Of a stretch of DNA of 44,576 nt, positions 17,538 through 40,698 are shown one piece after another (positions within the stretch are counted from its first letter, which is position 1; each line of letters opens with the position of its first letter). The stretch comes from a virus. Under the pieces are notes generated by a model. The model did no database searches. It was not told the origin of the DNA and was given only the letters and a program-made list of their open reading frames with translations. The DNA lies in the IMG/VR virus record IMGVR_UViG_3300007263_000130, positions 16,909 through 61,484 of that record; one strand, given 5' to 3'. A program made the position numbers and the translations under genes.

Positions 17538-17565
17538 ATTATCTCACTAATTCTTTATTTGTCAA
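17538..17565 (-). promoter_or_regulatory. Sigma70-like promoter, leaderless placement
   Basis: TTGACA, 16-nt spacer, GATAAT, then 6 nt to the ATG at 17531. The -35 box includes the TGA stop of the preceding gene. Confidence 0.7.
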
Positions 17566-17750
17566 GTAAATAAACTAATTATTTTGAATGCAAGTAGCAT
17601 GAAACCAAACATACAAACTTGCACAATTGATGCATATGTTATTTGCCTCATAGGATGCATCTCAGTAAGTTTTTCTATGATAGATTCGTTTGGTGATAAG
17701 TTTACGACTCGTAAGACTTTTTCTGGTTTAGAAAAGAAGGGAACATACAT
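17562..17750 (-). CDS. Small membrane protein, 62 residues
   Basis: The N-terminal 35 residues are polar and the C-terminal ~25 form a transmembrane helix (ASIVQVCMFGFMLLAFKII). AGGAT precedes the ATG. It starts one base after the stop of the 28-codon gene, so the two look like a pair at the end of the curli transcript. Function unknown. Confidence 0.6.
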   Translation of the reverse strand: MYVPFFSKPEKVLRVVNLSPNESIIEKLTEMHPMRQITYASIVQVCMFGFMLLAFKIISLFT

Positions 17751-17751
17751 T

Positions 17752-17838
17752 TTATAATCCTGTAATAGAGAAAACAGACACTAAAAAGAACGATATTAGT
17801 GTCCCAAGTTCAAGCGTATCTCTGAGTTTCTCTTTCAT
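17752..17838 (-). CDS. 28-residue membrane microprotein
   Basis: The short frame MKEKLRDTLELG... has a C-terminal hydrophobic stretch (LISFFLVSVFSITGL). It fits exactly between the end of the DUF5658-like gene and the next small membrane gene. An AT-rich -10-like TATATA lies 6 nt upstream without a good -35. Support is moderate. Confidence 0.4.
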   Translation of the reverse strand: MKEKLRDTLELGTLISFFLVSVFSITGL

Positions 17839-17870
17839 ACATAGTATATATAATATGTTATAACTAGAGA

Positions 17871-18497
17871 TTATATTAGTTTTTTACAAGTTCTTTTTGC
17901 TCTGTGAGTCACATTTAAGTTATTACCAATAACAATTGCCATGAAAGCATTTGTTGACCTTATGGTTCTTTTGTTTAGATTACCATTTTTTCTATCGTAT
18001 TGAATTGCTGGTGTTAATACTGCAAACTTAGTAAAGAACATATCGTTGACTGTTGGTCTTTTACCGAACAATGGATTTGCTTCTTCTATACATTCGTATT
18101 TAAGACCACGATAGGTTGTATAGATATCTGCAAGTTGTAATGTGACAAACAATGTCCAATCAAACTTAGTAGGATGGTCAATCAGTTCCCAGTGGTGTGT
18201 ATATTCGAACCTTTTCGGATTTACCTTTAACAAGTATCCTGTCGACTTCTCTAAATGCTCTTGATGGACATAATCGATAAGTTCTTTCCGATAACAACAA
18301 GTCCACCCCATCATAATTTCTTGTTTGTCCCTCAAGTCGAGCTCCCAAGTTAACGGCATCTCCGATGACTGAATAGTCAAATCTAATTTCTGACCCCATG
18401 TTTCCGACAATACATTCTCCTGTGCTGATGCCAATGCCGACATTAATAGGAGGCAAGTTGAGAGGAGAAAGCTCTTGATTAAGTTTCTTTGTTGCAT
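17871..18497 (-). CDS. DUF5658-like membrane protein, start uncertain
   Basis: The C-terminal ~100 residues look like a small membrane-protein family with the pattern LADIYTTYRGLKYECIEEANPLFG (compare 'D..tTyiGL....EaNPl'). The frame is open for 320 nt into the cyclase gene. Its first ATG (18497) has GGAAG upstream and encodes a signal-peptide-like start (FLLSTCLLLMSALASA, cleavage after ASA). Either the protein has a signal peptide overprinted on the cyclase domain, or it starts at a rarer codon near 18180 just after the cyclase stop. The C-terminal part is the safe part. Confidence 0.55.
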   Translation of the reverse strand: MQQRNLIKSFLLSTCLLLMSALASAQENVLSETWGQKLDLTIQSSEMPLTWELDLRDKQEIMMGWTCCYRKELIDYVHQEHLEKSTGYLLKVNPKRFEYTHHWELIDHPTKFDWTLFVTLQLADIYTTYRGLKYECIEEANPLFGKRPTVNDMFFTKFAVLTPAIQYDRKNGNLNKRTIRSTNAFMAIVIGNNLNVTHRAKRTCKKLI

Positions 18498-20025
18498 CTA
18501 ATACTTCCAATGCAGATTTAACTGCTAATTCAGCATGGTCTTTGCAATCAAGAGGTGCATTCCAGAATGCCATGATGCAATCACCCATGTATTTGTCTAT
18601 TGTTCCTTTATTATTTATGATTATCTTAGTCTGAATGTCAAGAAACTTATTGATTAGTTCTACTAATCCCTCTGGGTCATCATCGTTCTTATACTTTTCA
18701 CTGATAGGTGTGAACCCACATATGTCCATGAACATGAAGGTCATCTCTTTTCTCTCTCCACCGAGTTTTAAAAGTTCTGGATTCTTTGCAAGTTCATCTA
18801 CCATCTCTGGTGATAAGTACTTTTTAAATTGTCCTTTGATTTGTTCTTTTAACTTGTAGGTTACAAAGTACTTGTTGAAGGATGCATGTCCGAATACCAG
18901 TAAACCTGTTAAGGATGCATAAAGTGAATCAAACAGTATTAAGTTTTCTATCCATATCCAATAAGATACTGCAACTGAAAAACCAATTACAGTTATTGAT
19001 GCAATACCAGATAGGTATGTTGGGAATTGATATACCATGAATAAAACTAAAAGTCCCAGACCGATGACCAGAACTATTTCTGCAAAATCCAGAAGAAAAT
19101 TATTCTGGATTCTGTCACCAGAAAGTACAGTTTGGAGTAAGTTTGCTTGTACTTCATGAGGATACATAACACCATATGGAGTAGAAACTGGATTATTAAA
19201 TCCCTCTGCTGTCATTCCCCAGATAAGTATTTTGTTCTGGTATGATTCATCCAGTTCTGATGCACTTACTCTTTGAAACTTGTTCCAGTATGTTATCATA
19301 ACATCTGATGTAGATGTAGTTTCTATAGGTTGTTGTCGACCCATTCGTATCCATTCGATACCTACTTCTGGTGTCACTCTGGTTTGATAGTTTGGTTGGT
19401 CGTAATATGCACGAAGAGTTTCAAGTGCAACCGATGGATATATCTGGTCATTTGCAGAAACGATAAGTGGTGCAGACCGAACAGTTCCATCAAAGTTTGG
19501 TGTATCTGGTAAAGGTGGAGTAGAAACTGTTACTCCTACACCATAAGTGTTATCTTGTAGTACTTTGATAGGTGCAGAGATACCAGAAAAGTTCCAGATA
19601 GAATCTTTAATATCTCCACCACCGAATACCGAAGTCTTTACATATGGTGCAGAACCAGTATCTTTTTGACTTGTTGGAGCTGCAGATAAGACACTCAATC
19701 TATTTACAAGACCTTCTGCAAACTGATTATCTCCACCGAATCTATCTGGTTGATTGAATACTTGAGTAAATACATGAGTATTGGTGTAATGTGATTCTAA
19801 CATAATATCTGCATAGATATTACGAGGCCATGGGTATTGACCATACTTGTCTAATGATTTTTCATCAATATCTACAAGTACAATGTCTTTTATGTGTTGA
19901 GATTCTTTTTGTTGATGTAATACATCACAGTAAGACCACTTGATATTCTCTACAAGATAAGGTGACCATATCTTTAAACCTACCAACACTCCAAGTGTAA
20001 GTAGAACTGTTTTCCAATTATACAT
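18178..20025 (-). CDS. CHASE2-domain class III adenylate cyclase
   Basis: This is a 615-residue protein. It has an N-terminal membrane helix (about 5-22), a CHASE2 extracytoplasmic sensor domain (about 45-300), three further membrane helices (about 310-383) and a cytoplasmic class III cyclase domain (about 425-612). Metal-binding Asp434 (FMDICGF) and Asp482 (KYMGD), purine-specifying Lys478 and Asp550, and catalytic Asn559 and Arg563 (DAVNLGARLEG) are all in place, so it should make cAMP. The sensed signal is periplasmic and unknown. It lies in the curli transcript directly downstream of the curlin genes. A phage-encoded sensor cyclase is very unusual. Confidence 0.9.
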   Translation of the reverse strand: MYNWKTVLLTLGVLVGLKIWSPYLVENIKWSYCDVLHQQKESQHIKDIVLVDIDEKSLDKYGQYPWPRNIYADIMLESHYTNTHVFTQVFNQPDRFGGDNQFAEGLVNRLSVLSAAPTSQKDTGSAPYVKTSVFGGGDIKDSIWNFSGISAPIKVLQDNTYGVGVTVSTPPLPDTPNFDGTVRSAPLIVSANDQIYPSVALETLRAYYDQPNYQTRVTPEVGIEWIRMGRQQPIETTSTSDVMITYWNKFQRVSASELDESYQNKILIWGMTAEGFNNPVSTPYGVMYPHEVQANLLQTVLSGDRIQNNFLLDFAEIVLVIGLGLLVLFMVYQFPTYLSGIASITVIGFSVAVSYWIWIENLILFDSLYASLTGLLVFGHASFNKYFVTYKLKEQIKGQFKKYLSPEMVDELAKNPELLKLGGERKEMTFMFMDICGFTPISEKYKNDDDPEGLVELINKFLDIQTKIIINNKGTIDKYMGDCIMAFWNAPLDCKDHAELAVKSALEVLDATKKLNQELSPLNLPPINVGIGISTGECIVGNMGSEIRFDYSVIGDAVNLGARLEGQTRNYDGVDLLLSERTYRLCPSRAFREVDRILVKGKSEKVRIYTPLGTD

Positions 20026-20233
20026 TTAATTCTTCTTCTAGTTCTATTATATAGTCTTTCATATCAATCATCCACTCTTTGAGTCTCCGATGTTGTTTGT
20101 TGTGAAATTCTTTGTAGTACTTATCTGTTGATTGGATTGCCATTGCTTGATGATAATCCATAGTTTTTAATACAAGTGCAATTGCATCTTGATATGGCAT
20201 TCTCACTAAGGTTGAAAACTCTCTCTTTGTCAC
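20018..20233 (-). CDS. Small helical protein, GTG start
   Basis: This 71-residue charged helical protein (MDYHQAMAIQSTDKYYKEFHNKQHRRLKEW...) starts at GTG 20233 with AGGAG 9 nt upstream. It overlaps the cyclase start by 8 nt. It has no known domain. Its position between a curlin gene and the cyclase makes it part of the same operon. Confidence 0.6.
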   Translation of the reverse strand: MTKREFSTLVRMPYQDAIALVLKTMDYHQAMAIQSTDKYYKEFHNKQHRRLKEWMIDMKDYIIELEEELNV

Positions 20234-20245
20234 TCAAAATAACTC

Positions 20246-20914
20246 CTAGTTTCCTTGAGTCACATTAACAGTACAACCACCAGATGTATAACAATTCTGA
20301 GTCAATGAATATGTCTGATTTGTTCCACCTTGTTGTAAGAGATTTAATGTTGTAGGTTGGTTACCTTGTATTCTAATTTGTGCATTGTGATTACCACTTC
20401 CCTTTTGAGTCATGTCTGTTATAGAACCATCTGAATTACCATAAAAATATGCATGACTGTAATGAGTACCACTACCTTCTTGCCATGATTCATGGACTAC
20501 ATCATCTGCATGAATATCTAAGTTATGTGTATGGTCTCCACTCTGATAGATGTCTACAGTGTTTTCATCACCCCATATATGTCTACCATATGTTGCACCA
20601 TCATATTGTATTACTGATTCAGTATTGTTTGAACCATCAACATCACCACCCCAGTTCTTACCAGAACCCCAGTATGAAACCCATGAGATTGAGTTTCCAG
20701 TACCTACTTGCAAGAAATCAAATGTATTGTTTGAATGTGCAAATGAAAAGTTAATTGTATTTCCATATCCCTGTTGAGTTGCAGTGATTGATAAGTCATC
20801 ACCAGCACCACCCACTTGTTCTATATGAATATGGTTGTCATCACTAGGCCCTGCATATACTGGTAACCCAATACTAATTAGACTGATTAATAATAATTGT
20901 CGAATCATCTCCAT
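20246..20914 (-). CDS. Curlin-repeat protein (CsgA/CsgB-like), secreted
   Basis: The 222-residue protein has a signal peptide (RQLLLISLISIGLPVYAG, cut near AG). Curlin-like repeats follow, with the recurring Q-G-N spacing: IEQVGGAGDDL, TQQGYGNTI, LQVGTGNSI, IYQSGDHTH, MTQKGSGNHN and LLQQGGTNQ. Such repeats stack into cross-beta amyloid fibres outside the cell. Two cysteines near the end (NCYTSGGC) are unusual for CsgA. The start overlaps the FecR gene by 41 nt. It is probably exported through the CsgG encoded upstream. Confidence 0.82.
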   Translation of the reverse strand: MEMIRQLLLISLISIGLPVYAGPSDDNHIHIEQVGGAGDDLSITATQQGYGNTINFSFAHSNNTFDFLQVGTGNSISWVSYWGSGKNWGGDVDGSNNTESVIQYDGATYGRHIWGDENTVDIYQSGDHTHNLDIHADDVVHESWQEGSGTHYSHAYFYGNSDGSITDMTQKGSGNHNAQIRIQGNQPTTLNLLQQGGTNQTYSLTQNCYTSGGCTVNVTQGN

Positions 20915-22016
20915 CCCCTATGAGGATTATACCCTCATATCCTTCTACTATTGTTTCTAGATATACATTTGAACCACTTCCAAATGCAATCTCTATAACT
21001 CCATTTACATCTCTAAAGAAGATTAACTTTTCATCTTCAATAAAGACATTGTATTGTGAGTCTTGGTTCAATCCTAATACTGCACCTTCGACTCTAAAAG
21101 TTCCGATACTACCACCAGTACTATCTGATGATGCACCTCTTATTTTCTTATCCAGTTCTTCTATAACATCAAGAACATCTACAAGTAAGTCTACATTCAA
21201 TGCATCTATATCTAATGCAGTGAAATCATCTTCCATTGTTTCTTCGAGTTCATCTTTTTCCAACTCATTAAATTCTAGGAAATCTACATCTAGAATGCCT
21301 TGGTCTTGGTCGAGGTCATCTGCAGCTTGTTCTTCTATTGCAATTTTAACCTCTTGTGGTGGATTGACAATAAACATGTTATCAATCATTGAAGGTGTAA
21401 TGTTCTGAATCGTTACTGCAACTGTTGGTGGTGTCTCGAAAGAAGATACCATTGTTGCTTGATAAGGTTGGTTCAATAACATTTCACCACCTTCATTACT
21501 CACCACTATTTCTCCAGATGCAAAACCATCATCATCTGGAAGCAAAACTACAAGTGACCTACCAAGTTCATCAATTGTAGTTGTAAAATCTGTTCCATTT
21601 ATAGCAATCTGTGCCGTAGGTGTGGAGACCTGTATGTTTGCTTTCTTAATTTTCTTCCCACTTCCACTAGCAAACCTTGCAGTACCCTGTGCCATTCTAA
21701 TTGACATCTTGGATAAAGATGGATTAGGGTCATAATAAACTTCATCAATGTACACTCTAGTATGTTCAGTTAATGCAAGTTCTTCTTCATCTAAGAACTC
21801 AATCAACATACGACCATTTACTGTTTGTGCTTCATCATATAAAACGATATCTGAACCTACATTACTAGGTAGTCTTTCGTTATTTCTAACTATACCACCT
21901 ACACCTGTAGACTCTACAATATCTCCTATGGGGTCTTGTGCATAGACAGACCCCATAAGTAGAAATGCACTAACTATCGTTAGCTGAATCTTTTTGATTA
22001 ATTTGAATTGTTGCAT
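20874..22016 (-). CDS. FecR-domain exported protein with acidic region
   Basis: This 380-residue protein has a signal peptide (IQLTIVSAFLLMGSVYA), then a FecR domain at about residues 35-160 (TGVGGIVRNNERL, EFLDEEELALTEHTRVYIDE, VSTPTAQIAINGTDF). A very acidic middle (about 230-290, rich in Asp and Glu) follows. The C-terminal ~90 residues are rich in beta strands. FecR domains in bacteria sense or scaffold in the periplasm and often occur near CHASE2 cyclases. It may anchor or nucleate the curlin proteins on either side (inference). Confidence 0.82.
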   Translation of the reverse strand: MQQFKLIKKIQLTIVSAFLLMGSVYAQDPIGDIVESTGVGGIVRNNERLPSNVGSDIVLYDEAQTVNGRMLIEFLDEEELALTEHTRVYIDEVYYDPNPSLSKMSIRMAQGTARFASGSGKKIKKANIQVSTPTAQIAINGTDFTTTIDELGRSLVVLLPDDDGFASGEIVVSNEGGEMLLNQPYQATMVSSFETPPTVAVTIQNITPSMIDNMFIVNPPQEVKIAIEEQAADDLDQDQGILDVDFLEFNELEKDELEETMEDDFTALDIDALNVDLLVDVLDVIEELDKKIRGASSDSTGGSIGTFRVEGAVLGLNQDSQYNVFIEDEKLIFFRDVNGVIEIAFGSGSNVYLETIVEGYEGIILIGDGDDSTIIINQSN

Positions 22017-22713
22017 TATCAGAATCTATGTCCATGATGATTTTTGCATCTGGAGTTGCACATGAATTACCAGACCCAGAAACACATGTTCCAGATACTT
22101 GGTTAATATCAATGTCACCACTGTCACCTGTATAATCTACAGTCTGAGTATGAGCACCATCTTTCATTAATACATTTAGGTTGTTACTGTCACCAGTAAT
22201 TTCCCAATTAAAAGTGTTATCATCTGATTCAAAGTCTAAGTCAAAAACATTTGAATTACCAATAATGGTCATATCCAAATCTAATCTTTCTGCACTAAAC
22301 TGGTAGCCTTGGTCTAAATCCCAAGTATTCGAATCACCTGTTACTGTAATATCGTATACTGAATCATCAGCAGACCCTTGATAACCAATATTCCAATCTA
22401 AGACATTCGAATCCCCTGTAAATGACAAATCAAAATCCGATGTGTCTGCAATCAAAGGGCCGAATAATTTATTCTGGTTACCTATCTGGTCGATATCAAT
22501 AGTAAGCGTAGTACCTGTTATGACCATCTTTTCATCAGCATCAGAGTTGTTTGCAACTTTGTTACCGAATCCTACTTGGTCAATATAAAGGGTTAAAGTA
22601 TCCCCTTCTTGGTCTATTCTAATCTCATTGTCATCAGTTGCTTGTGCGAAAAGAATGTTAGTCGACATTAGTGCAATTAAGCAAAAACTAATTAGTTTCT
22701 TCATTTTCTTCAA
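21970..22713 (-). CDS. Curlin-like repeat protein, secreted
   Basis: The 247-residue protein has a signal peptide (ISFCLIALMSTNILFAQA). The mature part has repeated strands of about 22 residues with N/Q ladders: IDQEGDTL, IDQVGFGNKV, IDQIGNQNKL, then a run of GDSN/GNSN turns (FTGDSNVLDW, VTGDSNTWDL, IIGNSNVFDL, ITGDSNNLNV). It is much more acidic than CsgA. The two cysteines near the C-terminus recur in the other curlin-like protein. Likely a second amyloid subunit or nucleator. It overlaps CsgG by 26 nt and FecR by 47 nt. Confidence 0.78.
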   Translation of the reverse strand: MKKMKKLISFCLIALMSTNILFAQATDDNEIRIDQEGDTLTLYIDQVGFGNKVANNSDADEKMVITGTTLTIDIDQIGNQNKLFGPLIADTSDFDLSFTGDSNVLDWNIGYQGSADDSVYDITVTGDSNTWDLDQGYQFSAERLDLDMTIIGNSNVFDLDFESDDNTFNWEITGDSNNLNVLMKDGAHTQTVDYTGDSGDIDINQVSGTCVSGSGNSCATPDAKIIMDIDSDNATIQINQKDSANDS

Positions 22714-23710
22714 GCTCCTCGAAAGGTTCTAGTTTCTCACCAGTAATGTTTTCAACTTCATCATACCATGCGTCCACAGCATGTTTATCATTAGTACCAT
22801 CACTCTGATGAGGATGTCTATGACCTTCCTCTATTACCCAATAGCCTCTATCGTGGCCTTGGTATATTAATTCCAACACTCCTGCTTCAATAGCACTTCG
22901 TGTTGCGTATGTCACCGACTCATTATTACCCACTCCATCCTCGATTTCTACTAACTGAGTTCCTTCTTCGATGAATCTAAAAACATCACCACCAGAACCA
23001 TAACTCAATATAGTTTTTCGAGTCTGTACATTTAATAAAACTTCTCCAGTTAAAACAGAGACAGCTCTAATTGAAACTGTTACAGCATCTTGTCGATACT
23101 GTTTAGTAAAACCAATACCAAGTGTTCTAGCACCTTTTCCGCCAGTCTTGATATTAGTATCATAACCTATAACTCCACCTTCAATAATCATGCCTGCAAA
23201 GAGCATAGGTGCAATTCCTTTTGACTCTTCACCTTTTGCATCTGCCCACTCTTTCCTTGCAGAACGAATGATTTGTCTTTCTCTTACTAGGTGGTCTAAT
23301 CCTGTTCTTTCTACAACTCTAAACCATGTTCCACCACCAGCAGTTTTTAGTGCATCTATTAACATTGCATCTGCACCTTGAGTCACTGCTGTCGAGAACG
23401 AAGCATACTGGTCTAATTGTTTTCTTTGACCAGTCAAATCTTGGAATTTATAAACTGCAACAATGGGTTGTTCCTTTGCTGGTGGTAAGTCTAGTAATTC
23501 CAGATATGCTGGAAGTTTTACAACGATAGGACTTTCTACACAAATATATTGTCTAGTCCATGCCTTTGCAACTCCAGTGACTATATCTTTTCTAAATCCT
23601 TCTTCAAACCTTCCTGTTTCATATGCACAATCAGCTGGGTTCTCAGAGAACTTAGGTGTTGATGCACATCCAGTTAGGAATACAAAGGTTAGTAATGCAA
23701 CCCATCTCAT
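22688..23710 (-). CDS. csgG: CsgG-type outer-membrane curli secretion lipoprotein
   Basis: The 340-residue protein has a lipoprotein signal with lipobox LTGC (Cys15). CsgG features follow: IVAVYKFQDLTGQRK, a long amphipathic pore segment with ADAMLIDALKTAGGGTWFRVVERTGLDHLVRERQI, IIEGGVIGYDTN, and RAVSVLTGEVLLNVQTRKTI. CsgG forms a nine-subunit outer-membrane channel that lets unfolded curlins out. The length is slightly above E. coli CsgG (277 residues) because of a C-terminal acidic tail. It shares one base with the csgF stop. Confidence 0.92.
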   Translation of the reverse strand: MRWVALLTFVFLTGCASTPKFSENPADCAYETGRFEEGFRKDIVTGVAKAWTRQYICVESPIVVKLPAYLELLDLPPAKEQPIVAVYKFQDLTGQRKQLDQYASFSTAVTQGADAMLIDALKTAGGGTWFRVVERTGLDHLVRERQIIRSARKEWADAKGEESKGIAPMLFAGMIIEGGVIGYDTNIKTGGKGARTLGIGFTKQYRQDAVTVSIRAVSVLTGEVLLNVQTRKTILSYGSGGDVFRFIEEGTQLVEIEDGVGNNESVTYATRSAIEAGVLELIYQGHDRGYWVIEEGHRHPHQSDGTNDKHAVDAWYDEVENITGEKLEPFEELEENEETN

Positions 23711-24231
23711 TAACCGCCCCCATCACCATCACCAGAACCATCATCACCAAAGTATCCTGTTCCGATTGGTATTTCAATAACTGTTGATGAACCTTCTTGG
23801 TCAACAATAGTCATTCTGATGAACTCTGTACCATCTTCGTTTGTAATAACTTCATATGTAACTGTAGAACCTTCTAAAACAAATGACCCAAATCTTACTG
23901 GGTTGTCATTTGAAAACATAGATTCGACTAATTGTTTTGCCATCTGAGCATAAATTCTGCTCTCTAAATTTCTAATAAATTTTGCAAGAGTTGTATTATC
24001 TGCTTCTCTTTCTGCAGCTTTCCTTGCAGCCTCAAGTGCATCTTCGATTGCCTTCTTTCTGCTGAACTCTTGGTTCTCGATTGTAAGATAATGTGCGCCA
24101 GTCCCTATTCCACTGAACGATGGATTCTTAAACTGGTGTTTAATTTCATCTGCTTTTACACTTGATGCACCAAATACTAAAAGTATTATCCATCCAAGAA
24201 CTAGTAATTCTTTATCCTTCTTTAGTTTCAT
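23710..24231 (-). CDS. csgF: CsgF-type curli assembly protein
   Basis: The start at ATG 24231 (AAAGGAAAAGG upstream) gives 173 residues; the longest frame adds 13 Lys/Arg-rich residues. A signal peptide (LLVLGWIILLVFGASSVKA) is followed by the CsgF hallmark KNPSFSGIGTGAHYL, the segment that plugs into the CsgG pore. A helical stretch and a beta-rich end with a Gly/Asp-rich tail come next. CsgF couples secretion to nucleation at the cell surface. It overlaps the upstream membrane gene by 20 nt. Confidence 0.88.
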   Translation of the reverse strand: MKLKKDKELLVLGWIILLVFGASSVKADEIKHQFKNPSFSGIGTGAHYLTIENQEFSRKKAIEDALEAARKAAEREADNTTLAKFIRNLESRIYAQMAKQLVESMFSNDNPVRFGSFVLEGSTVTYEVITNEDGTEFIRMTIVDQEGSSTVIEIPIGTGYFGDDGSGDGDGGG

Positions 24232-24496
24232 CCTTTTCCTTTTCCTCTTCCAAGTATTTCTGTCTTTCACGATATTCTAAGACAACATTAATCTTTTGCT
24301 GAAGTCTTATCATGTCTTGGTCTAACATTCTGAGTTGGTCTGTTAACTTGATTGCACTTGCAAACATTCGACCTAATGAGGGTTTAATCTCTTGAGTTAC
24401 AAATTTCCATGTAAAATAGATAAAGTAACCCATTCCCAATGCCATTGCGACTGGAAATCCGAACTCTGCAATTACTTGTGCTATCTTTTCCATCAA
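24212..24496 (-). CDS. Membrane protein with coiled-coil tail (first of a pair in reverse order)
   Basis: In this 94-residue protein one transmembrane helix (FPVAMALGMGYFIYFTW) is followed by a long charged helix ending in a Glu/Lys run. The order (N-terminal 'EFGFPVAMALGMGYFI', then helix) is the same as in the gene just upstream (SEVGVPIFGAVVMAFFIF), so they look like diverged duplicates. It overlaps the upstream gene by 4 nt (ATGA). Possible roles are a holin-like or inner-membrane helper for curlin export; neither is proved. Confidence 0.65.
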   Translation of the reverse strand: MMEKIAQVIAEFGFPVAMALGMGYFIYFTWKFVTQEIKPSLGRMFASAIKLTDQLRMLDQDMIRLQQKINVVLEYRERQKYLEEEKEKDETKEG

Positions 24497-24786
24497 TCTC
24501 TTCTTGCATCGATTGTCCCATCCTCTACAAAGTTCTCTGCCCTAGCAACCCTATCTATAGGTGGTGTTAGTTCTAATGCACTACTCACCAGTAAATCGAT
24601 TCTTAAAATGTCATTATTCATGACTTTTGCACGAGTTTCTAACATATTAATGATATTTTCTGTGCTTTTTATTTGTCCAATTACAGAGTCAAAGATATAT
24701 TTCATACTTAAAAATATGAAAAATGCCATAACGACTGCACCAAATATAGGCACACCCACTTCACTCATAAAGTTTAATAAAGACAT
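24493..24786 (-). CDS. Membrane protein with helical tail (paralogue-like)
   Basis: The 97-residue protein has an N-terminal transmembrane segment (VPIFGAVVMAFFIFLSMKYIF) and then an amphipathic helix (IKSTENIINMLETRAKVMNNDILRI without enzyme motifs). It is the first gene after the late promoter at 24806-24813 and has a strong Shine-Dalgarno (AGGAGAG). It forms a pair with 24212-24496. Confidence 0.65.
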   Translation of the reverse strand: MSLLNFMSEVGVPIFGAVVMAFFIFLSMKYIFDSVIGQIKSTENIINMLETRAKVMNNDILRIDLLVSSALELTPPIDRVARAENFVEDGTIDARRD

Positions 24787-24805
24787 AATCTCTCCTGTTC
24801 GTAAG

Positions 24806-24813
24806 TATTTATA
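24806..24813 (-). promoter_or_regulatory. T4-type late promoter TATAAATA of the curli operon
   Basis: A perfect TATAAATA lies on the minus strand. The predicted +1 is 24800 and the 14-nt leader contains AGGAGAG before the ATG at 24786. It drives the genes from 24786 down to about 17752. Confidence 0.8.
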
Positions 24814-24847: not shown

Positions 24848-25198
24848 TTAGAAAGTCATGGAAACACCACAACCACAAGATGCAGTAACATTTGGGTTTT
24901 CGAAAGTAAATTCTTCTTGGATTCCATTCTTTACATAATCTAAAACTAGATTATTAACATAAGGTATTGACATTGCATCAATATGAATGGTGAATTTACC
25001 AAAGTCTAAAACTTGGTCTGAGGGTTCAGAGGTGGTGTTGTAGTCAAATATATATTCATATCCACCACAACCACCACCAGTGATTCCTAATCTAATCTCA
25101 GAGACACCTTTATCCTCTGTCCTTTTCAACAATTGTAAAATTGCAGAATCAGTCAGTTCGATATTAACTGTCGGCTTTGAGTATACGATAGGCTCCAT
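24848..25198 (-). CDS. iscA: IscA/HesB-type iron-sulfur carrier
   Basis: From ATG 25198 (AGGAC upstream) it has 116 residues. It has the A-type carrier pattern: LTDSAILQLLKR, IRLGITGGGCGGYEY (first Cys) and the C-terminal SCGCG (the two further Cys). These three cysteines hold an iron-sulfur cluster for delivery to target enzymes. It could support the phage's own metalloenzymes. The gene overlaps the 53-codon membrane gene by 35 nt. Marine T4-like phages often carry such a gene. Confidence 0.88.
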   Translation of the reverse strand: MEPIVYSKPTVNIELTDSAILQLLKRTEDKGVSEIRLGITGGGCGGYEYIFDYNTTSEPSDQVLDFGKFTIHIDAMSIPYVNNLVLDYVKNGIQEEFTFENPNVTASCGCGVSMTF

Positions 25199-25325
25199 AG
25201 ACAAGTCCTGCCCATGCCAACCATTTGACCACTGGGCCAAGTATTAGTACTCCGAGAGAGATTCCGACTATAACAGCACCATCTAAAGTAGATAGTTCTT
25301 TAAGTCTTCCTTTGATAAAATCCAT
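25164..25325 (-). CDS. Small membrane protein, 53 residues
   Basis: A complete frame starts at ATG 25325 with a good Shine-Dalgarno (GAGGAAAA) and ends at TAA 25164. A short charged start (MDFIKGRLKELS) is followed by a long hydrophobic region (AVIVGISLGVLILGPVVKW, then LAWAGLVYGAYRIL), most likely two membrane helices. It lies between the 79-residue gene and iscA on the same transcript. Function unknown. Confidence 0.65.
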   Translation of the reverse strand: MDFIKGRLKELSTLDGAVIVGISLGVLILGPVVKWLAWAGLVYGAYRILKADS

Positions 25326-25756: not shown

Positions 25757-25997
25757 GATTTTCTAATTCTTTCTCAATTGAATCTATCCTCTGGGATAGT
25801 AATGGATAATCTTGTCTCCATTTTGCCTCTTTCTTTGCAACTTCGATATCATATCGATTTGCAATCCATGCCATCAATCCATTTACATAGTTCTGAAACC
25901 AGATACCGAGTTTAGTTGATTGAAACCATTTATAGAAAGAACTTCCTATAATAGAAGACAAAATTGATTTAAGTGTAAGAGTTATTAGGAAACTCAT
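25743..25997 (-). CDS. Small membrane-associated protein with coiled-coil tail
   Basis: The 84-residue protein has a hydrophobic N-terminal helix (FLITLTLKSILSSIIGSSF), a Trp-rich amphipathic section (WFQNYVNGLMAWIANRY) and a charged coiled-coil end (QRIDSIEKELENLKKS). Its start overlaps the lipase stop by 4 nt. A holin-like role is possible, because it follows a lipase, but that is only a guess. Confidence 0.6.
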   Translation of the reverse strand: MSFLITLTLKSILSSIIGSSFYKWFQSTKLGIWFQNYVNGLMAWIANRYDIEVAKKEAKWRQDYPLLSQRIDSIEKELENLKKS

Positions 25998-26761
25998 TTG
26001 GATGCATTCGATAGATGTTTTATATAATCATCTATGTTATGGTCTGCAACAAAGTCTATCCGACCTTTGATGATAGTAGATAGCAATCCCCAACCTTTAT
26101 CTCTGATTCTTTCCCAAGACCATCGACCAAGATTAGTTACTTGTCCATTTGATTTTATATAAACACAACTACCATTGTGTCTCCATCTGAATACTGTAGG
26201 TACACAAGGTACAACATCGTTGTTGTTTACATGTCTTTGATGTTTTAAATGTTTATCACACCACTTAGAAAACTGAGGGCCTCCTGCTCTTGGAGAACCA
26301 TATGTGAACAAAGTATCAACATCAGTCTTTTCAACATATTCTAATCTAGATGCAATCAATGTTGCCATTGCACCACCAAGTGAATGTCCACAAACCCATA
26401 TCTTTTTATTGAGTCCATATCTTTCGACTCTTGCAAGAACATGTTCCCAGACTTTATCTACTTCACCTCTAAATCCTTGATGGATTTGACCGACTCCTGT
26501 AAAAGAATCTTCTTTGAATATCTCTAAGTCTGCATAGATATCATTCATTTGAGTAGGTTCAGTACCTCTGGCTGCAATAACTAAATCAGTATTGTTATGC
26601 CATACATGAACTTGAGCACCATCTATATCAAATAGTTTATGTGCTTTCATACCTTTTCCTTTACCAAACATTTTTCCATCTGCTTGATTCATGTATGCAG
26701 CTTTAGAATACTCTGCAAAGAGTAATCTTTGTTGTGGTAGGGTTAGGTTGTCCATGTTCAT
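25994..26761 (-). CDS. Class 3 lipase (alpha/beta hydrolase)
   Basis: The 255-residue protein has the full triad of a class 3 lipase: Ser127 in GHSLGG (125-130), Asp182 in NNDVVPCVP and His241 in VADHNIDDY. The lid/oxyanion strand VIAARGTEP is also typical. It has no signal peptide, so it would act in the cytoplasm or at the inner membrane, possibly on membrane lipids around lysis or on an ester in storage material. It follows regA directly (TAA then ATG). Confidence 0.88.
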   Translation of the reverse strand: MNMDNLTLPQQRLLFAEYSKAAYMNQADGKMFGKGKGMKAHKLFDIDGAQVHVWHNNTDLVIAARGTEPTQMNDIYADLEIFKEDSFTGVGQIHQGFRGEVDKVWEHVLARVERYGLNKKIWVCGHSLGGAMATLIASRLEYVEKTDVDTLFTYGSPRAGGPQFSKWCDKHLKHQRHVNNNDVVPCVPTVFRWRHNGSCVYIKSNGQVTNLGRWSWERIRDKGWGLLSTIIKGRIDFVADHNIDDYIKHLSNASK

Positions 26762-40621: not shown

Positions 40622-40698
40622 TGGCGTTCCCAGTAGGATTCGAACCTACAACCTTCGGTTTAGAAGACCGATGCTCTCTCCTGTTGAGCTATGAGAAC
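40622..40698 (-). tRNA. tRNA-Arg (anticodon UCU)
   Basis: A 77-nt cloverleaf reads on the minus strand: acceptor GTTCTCA pairs with TGGGAAC, the D-arm has AGCTC...GAGC, the anticodon loop is CTTCTAA (TCT), the T-arm has GGTTCGAATCC, and the CCA end is encoded. It reads AGA and AGG, codons favoured in AT-rich phage genes. It lies at the end of the structured transcript from 40991. Confidence 0.95.

What the first reader, a model, noticed from the sequence alone, without database searches (positions are those of the whole stretch)
17752..24813. Curli-type secretion operon under a phage late promoter
CsgG, CsgF, two curlin-repeat proteins and a FecR-domain protein follow a perfect TATAAATA. Late timing suggests that fibres or the CsgG pore act near the end of infection: superinfection exclusion, cell clumping, virion attachment to aggregates, or outer-membrane permeabilisation. 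A phage with its own amyloid export system is uncommon.
Basis: partly seen in the sequence, partly recalled or inferred. Interest (0 to 1): 0.85.

Follow-up and report, generated by a model that had tools for sequence, protein, structure and literature searches.

The report
Phage-borne curli fibre export operon
A marine T4-like phage carries a late-promoter operon for building curli-type adhesive amyloid fibres on its host; such phage operons were already published, but this check adds two membrane proteins that always accompany it, a conserved late promoter, and a much wider phage range.

Summary
On the minus strand, a TATAAATA (24806-24813) precedes T1, T2, csgF, csgG, curlin-1, a FecR-domain protein, curlin-2, a 71-aa ORF, a CHASE2 adenylate cyclase and a DUF5658 ORF. 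The phage is T4-like. The kind is known: phage curli (type VIII secretion) operons were reported in 2020 and 2022 (PMC7029224, PMC9599517, PMC9004378). They are common, not rare. What I add by computation: (1) the late promoter is conserved at the operon head across phages with unrelated upstream DNA; (2) T1/T2, small one-TM coiled-coil proteins, are a constant phage-only partner of the module, and no histidine-kinase ATPase domain exists in the window record or in the complete HTVC008M and Melnitz genomes; (3) the FecR protein is secreted and ends in a curlin strand in 56 of 56 distinct orthologues, so a fibre anchor or cap fits better than an iron regulator; (4) curlin-2 evolves fastest and carries a PA14 domain in HTVC008M; (5) the module reaches gp23-bearing contigs of 245-383 kb. 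Best reading: late secretion of an adhesive curli-type coat on the infected cell. That fibres form is not shown.

The parts
24806..24813 (-). T4-type late promoter TATAAATA, 19 nt upstream of the T1 start codon
   Evidence: position conserved across loci
24493..24786 (-). T1: 97-aa one-TM coiled-coil protein, phrog_18771, C-terminal ARRD
   Evidence: family in 83 of 84 operon loci
24212..24496 (-). T2: 94-aa paralogue of T1, phrog_18771 (listed start TTG)
23710..24270 (-). csgF (listed start GTG; true start uncertain)
   Evidence: Pfam CsgF E 2.3e-14
22688..23710 (-). csgG, outer-membrane pore lipoprotein
21970..22713 (-). curlin-1, secreted curlin-repeat protein
20874..22016 (-). secreted FecR-domain protein ending in a curlin-type strand (IIINQSN)
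20246..20914 (-). curlin-2, faster-evolving secreted curlin-repeat protein
20018..20233 (-). 71-aa ORF, no family; found only in close relatives
18178..20025 (-). CHASE2 domain plus class III adenylate cyclase
17871..18497 (-). DUF5658 ORF overlapping the cyclase 3' end (true start probably further downstream)
17562..17750 (-). 62-aa one-TM ORF; relatives in only four loci; membership in the operon uncertain

Best explanation
This is a phage-borne curli-type (type VIII) secretion operon switched on late in infection. Shown by sequence: a conserved late promoter, OM pore CsgG, partner CsgF, two secreted curlin-repeat proteins, a secreted FecR-domain protein with a terminal curlin strand, a membrane CHASE2 adenylate cyclase, and a constant pair of small inner-membrane-type proteins T1/T2. 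Inferred: after Sec export, CsgG-CsgF passes the curlins and the FecR protein through the outer membrane; the FecR protein anchors, nucleates or caps the fibre through its curlin strand; T1/T2 replace the missing CsgE as an accessory or gate; the cyclase reads the envelope state. The resulting adhesive coat holds neighbouring cells, and so the next hosts, close to the infected cell before it bursts.
For: Gene order T-T-F-G-C-R-C-(p71)-A-D, complete or cut mostly by contig ends, in the 84 sources compared. Promoter conserved at the head with divergent surroundings; in HTVC008M [N]ATAAATA lies within 60 nt of 10 of 32 late genes and 0 of 26 DNA-metabolism genes, Fisher p 0.0013. Genes under purifying selection against close relatives, dN/dS about 0.02-0.30 apart from curlin-2 (0.17-0.47) and the 71-aa ORF (0.10-0.34). 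FecR proteins end in [VILMFT]x[VILMF]xQ in 56 of 56 distinct sequences and curlin-2 in 48 of 50, against 0 of 288 CsgG, CsgF, cyclase, T and DUF5658 proteins. HTVC008M curlin-2 has a PA14 domain, E 2.7e-6, plus curlin repeats; a protein between FecR and cyclase in L140 has a galactose-binding F5/8C domain, E 2.4e-8. CsgG found in only 1 of 81 Pelagibacter-genus genomes, there on a small contig whose CsgG groups with phages.
Against: I found no fibre, Congo red or ThT result for any phage system. The authors of Melnitz saw no clumping by cytometry or TEM in culture (PMC9004378). Curlin repeats are weak by Pfam. CsgE is absent, so export may be inefficient. cNMP-binding domains occur in only 8 of 81 Pelagibacter-genus genomes, each in an 870-aa frame, so a target for the cyclase is unclear. 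The contig's host is assumed SAR11-like, not shown.
Confidence: 0.55

Rival explanations
1. Lysis-timing device: CsgG(F) acts as a pinholin- or secretin-like pore, with T1/T2 as inner-membrane holin-like partners, to time release of progeny.
For: Proposed for Melnitz (PMC9004378). Late promoter. T2 weakly matches a holin PHROG (E 0.0035) and two T members weakly match YvrJ (best E 0.016).
Against: The proposal assumed csgA/B are missing, but Melnitz carries two curlin-repeat proteins and a FecR protein in the same order. A pore needs no curlins, FecR protein or cyclase. T proteins occur in the cultured-phage collection only beside curli genes, which a general holin would not.
Confidence: 0.15
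2. Superinfection exclusion: the fibre coat blocks receptors against competing phages.
For: Proposed in PMC9599517, where curli-driven aggregates are said to limit phage penetration. Fast-evolving curlin-2 would suit competition.
Against: Late promoter, whereas T-even exclusion genes are early (own knowledge).
Confidence: 0.15
3. Virion decoration: curlins are packed on virions as adhesive fibres rather than displayed by cells.
For: Late timing as for structural genes.
Against: Signal-peptide-like N-terminal hydrophobic stretches on curlins and FecR protein, lipobox on CsgG, and a dedicated outer-membrane export pore all point out of the cell.
Confidence: 0.05
4. Nutrient uptake: the CsgG pore without its CsgE gate lets larger solutes in during infection.
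For: CsgE absent; proposed in PMC7029224 and PMC9599517.
Against: Does not explain curlins, FecR protein or late timing.
Confidence: 0.1

Closest known systems
Pelagiphage T8SS/curli module (HTVC008M, pelagimyophage contigs, HTVC023P-type podophages; PMC7029224, PMC9599517)
   Same: csgF-csgG-curlin-FecR-curlin-cyclase order with small upstream genes; absent from the host genus; no CsgE.
   Different: Published as preceded by one or two histidine kinases (podophage genomes, which I could not read); in myophages the genes at that position are T1/T2, and no HATPase_c domain exists in HTVC008M, Melnitz or the window record. I read FecR as a secreted fibre protein, not a regulator. CsgG 44% identical to HTVC008M.
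Melnitz (OM43 methylophage) curli operon (PMC9004378)
   Same: Same gene order T-T-F-G-C-R-C-cyclase.
   Different: That paper reported csgA/B missing and proposed a lysis role; two curlin-repeat proteins are present.
E. coli curli system csgBAC-csgDEFG
   Same: CsgG and CsgF homologous; curlin repeats.
   Different: No CsgE in the genomes searched; CsgC and CsgD not seen among operon matches; FecR protein, cyclase and T1/T2 added.
Hyphomonas sp. TMED17 chromosomal cluster csgF-csgG-curlin-FecR-cyclase (L173)
   Same: Same five genes in order between genes that look bacterial.
   Different: No T1/T2 in that genome; its CsgG falls inside the phage clade, so donor or recipient is open.

Membership tests
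Curli / type VIII secretion system | CsgG outer-membrane lipoprotein pore | tested here: met
   (lipobox)
Curli / type VIII secretion system | CsgF | tested here: met
   E 2.3e-14
Curli / type VIII secretion system | Secreted curlin-repeat subunits (CsgA/CsgB-like) | tested here: met
   curlin-2 over the Pfam cut-off, curlin-1 just under; no PDB sequence match for curlin-1
Curli / type VIII secretion system | CsgE periplasmic gate (in E. coli; reported as stimulating, not essential, PMC7029224) | tested here: not met
   none in 10 genomes or records; control E. coli positive
Curli / type VIII secretion system | Forms extracellular amyloid fibres | not testable with these tools
Published pelagiphage T8SS module | Order csgF-csgG-curlin-FecR-curlin-cyclase in a marine phage | tested here: met
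   phage genes
Published pelagiphage T8SS module | Histidine kinase upstream of csgF | tested here: not met
   T1/T2 are 97 and 94 aa with one TM; no kinase family match; no HATPase_c in window record, HTVC008M or Melnitz. The podophage sequences of PMC9599517 were not read.
FecR iron-signalling regulator | Works with a FecI-type sigma factor and TonB receptor | tested here: inconclusive
   N-terminal signal-like stretch and curlin-type C-terminus; no search for FecI or TonB receptor was made
Class III adenylate cyclase | Catalytic motifs | tested here: met
   DKYMGD in 38 of 39 and [ST]V[IL]GDAVNL in 37 of 39 orthologues
Phage holin (for T1/T2) | Significant match to a holin family and use in phages at large | tested here: not met
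   best E 0.0035, no Pfam holin; only in curli phages among cultured ones
T4-type late promoter | TATAAATA upstream of late, not early, genes | tested here: met
   transcription itself not tested

The most novel reading that the evidence does not exclude
T1/T2 are a previously unnamed, phage-specific subunit pair of a phage-owned branch of type VIII secretion: an inner-membrane gate or chaperone standing in for CsgE. The FecR-domain protein is a secreted fibre cap. This branch forms one old CsgG clade spread over pelagiphages and T4-like jumbo phages.
Probability: 0.4. Interest if true: 0.6.

Novelty: new member of a known kind. Interest (0 to 1): 0.42.

Why it matters
If these operons make fibres, very common marine phages give free-living, streamlined bacteria a sticky surface that they otherwise lack, just before lysis. 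That would change how encounter, aggregation and gene exchange in the open ocean are modelled. The constant T1/T2 pair and the late promoter give concrete handles to test it.

Tried and rejected
A profile of FecR proteins against solved structures gave only weak, unconvincing matches (best E 0.0085), and curlin-1 none below 0.2. T1/T2 as histidine kinase: rejected for the myophages. T1/T2 as a general holin: rejected on distribution. Simple enrichment of TATAAATA in the window: not significant, replaced by the positional test. T1+T2 alignment as a collection query had no conserved stretch; T2 alone worked. In distant phages the exact motif is less frequent (18 of 81 distinct first-T upstreams), so the promoter claim is limited to near relatives and HTVC008M. 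DUF5658 found no relative among cultured phages.

Full report
What is there. The window is bases 16909-61484 of a 61,484-base IMG/VR record and comes from a T4-like phage: gp43 DNA polymerase, UvsX, DnaB-like helicase, SbcC-like nuclease subunit, CobS-type and RegA-type genes. GC is 34.6%, operon 36.2%. On the minus strand, starting at TATAAATA 24806-24813, run T1, T2, csgF, csgG, curlin-1, FecR-domain protein, curlin-2, a 71-aa ORF, a CHASE2 adenylate cyclase and a DUF5658 ORF. As listed, neighbouring ORFs overlap, apart from a 12-base gap between curlin-2 and the 71-aa ORF.

How solid the assignments are. CsgG is certain (profile against solved CsgG; lipobox), CsgF strong, the cyclase strong with most catalytic motifs kept. 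The curlins are weak but consistent: one over and one just under the Pfam cut-off, both weakly matching the CsgA model, enriched for curlin-like motifs over shuffled copies, and with invariant G, N and Q columns across 24 curlin-1 sequences.

Known before. Curli genes in pelagimyophages were reported in 2020 with a 'sibling capture' idea (PMC7029224). The fuller module with FecR, cyclase and 'histidine kinase' was reported in 2022 for podophages and myophages (PMC9599517). A lysis role was proposed for Melnitz (PMC9004378). So the operon as a kind is not new, and it is not uncommon.

Conserved order and promoter. In the 84 sources compared (80 IMG/VR loci, L001 = part of the window's own record, HTVC008M, Melnitz, window) the order is T-T-F-G-C-R-C-A-D, complete or cut mostly by contig ends, with some members lacking the last genes. 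Directly before the first T gene, 23 of 30 distinct upstream sequences carry [TCG]ATAAATA within 45 nt; random windows 0.6%; inner operon starts 2 of 164. In HTVC008M the same motif lies before 10 of 32 late genes and none of 26 DNA-metabolism genes (my assignment of annotated genes to the two classes); there the operon has a copy before the upstream dioxygenase gene and another before csgF. PMC7029224 reported that late promoter prediction failed in pelagimyophages; PMC9004378 listed 15 late promoters in Melnitz. In more distant phages the exact motif is less common.

T1/T2. They are paralogues (phrog_18771) of about 84-135 aa with one TM and a coiled-coil-like tail; T1 ends in (R/K)D in the aligned set. 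Among 50,697 phage records they occur only in HTVC008M and the Melnitz isolates. A search seeded with T2 alone gave 80 loci: 56 have csgG in the flank and 9 more have it elsewhere in the same record; the other 15 carry only part of the module, or none in fragments of about 7.5 kb or less, and no record without csgG was shown to be complete. They are missing from the Hyphomonas genome that has the five-gene cluster. In myophages they sit where PMC9599517 places one or two histidine kinases; the window record, HTVC008M and Melnitz contain no HATPase_c domain. I did not read the podophage sequences of that paper, so the correction is shown for myophages only.

FecR-domain protein. All 56 distinct orthologues in the near set end in a curlin-type strand, as do 48 of 50 curlin-2 proteins, and none of 288 other operon proteins. 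In Alphaproteobacteria the best further FecR-domain matches lie mostly in long open frames of several hundred to thousands of codons; a weak match to a Leptospira surface adhesin model exists. I infer a secreted fibre anchor, nucleator or cap. This is inference from sequence; no structure could be predicted.

Adhesion clues. Curlin-2 evolves faster than the other secreted parts in most comparisons. HTVC008M's curlin-2 carries a PA14 domain and a protein inserted in L140 carries a galactose-binding domain.

Range and origin. All 51 phage-type CsgG sequences plus one chromosomal Hyphomonas sequence form one supported side of the tree (SH-aLRT 99), apart from 41 other bacterial CsgG. Eight of twelve large records tested have a T4-type gp23 capsid gene, at 245-383 kb. 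Two jumbo-phage surveys do not mention curli. The Hyphomonas cluster may be donor or recipient.

Mechanism. Best reading: a late adhesive curli-type coat that keeps neighbouring host cells near the lysing cell (0.55 for the whole chain; export alone more likely, the ecological purpose less). Late timing speaks against superinfection exclusion. Presence of curlins in Melnitz removes a premise of the lysis proposal. The cyclase's target is unexplained: cNMP-binding domains are found in only 8 of 81 Pelagibacter-genus genomes.

Noticed in passing
L084-L086 (HTVC008M) and operon loci: The late motif often ends 5 nt before the ATG, which would place the start codon at the transcription start: late mRNAs of these phages may be leaderless.
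   Followed up: partly
L173 (Hyphomonas sp. TMED17): A chromosomal csgF-csgG-curlin-FecR-cyclase cluster, so FecR and cyclase can sit in a bacterial curli cluster; its CsgG lies within the phage clade.
   Followed up: partly
L123, L129, L136, L142, L144, L149, L151: Large secreted-looking proteins of 499-798 aa, without a Pfam match where tested, are inserted between the FecR/curlin-2 genes and the cyclase.
   Followed up: no
L167-L172, L174-L177: Phage curli contigs binned into bacterial genomes (Planctomycetes, Flavobacteria, a Pelagibacter MAG and others), which could mislead surveys of bacterial curli.
   Followed up: partly
OR851715.1 (hit H7): A 1,499-base 'Salmonella phage' record consists largely of a CsgG-like gene 40% identical to this one; it may be a stray bacterial fragment.
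   Followed up: no
window 24848-25240: ORF just upstream of the operon with a cysteine pattern like Fe-S carrier proteins (by eye; phrog_17776 unknown); related ORFs lie at other places in the module in some relatives.
   Followed up: no
window 25994-26761: Esterase/lipase-like gene (phrog_21992) close to the operon; found in only two of the other loci compared.
   Followed up: no
window 40622-40698: tRNA-Arg (tct) on the minus strand.
   Followed up: no
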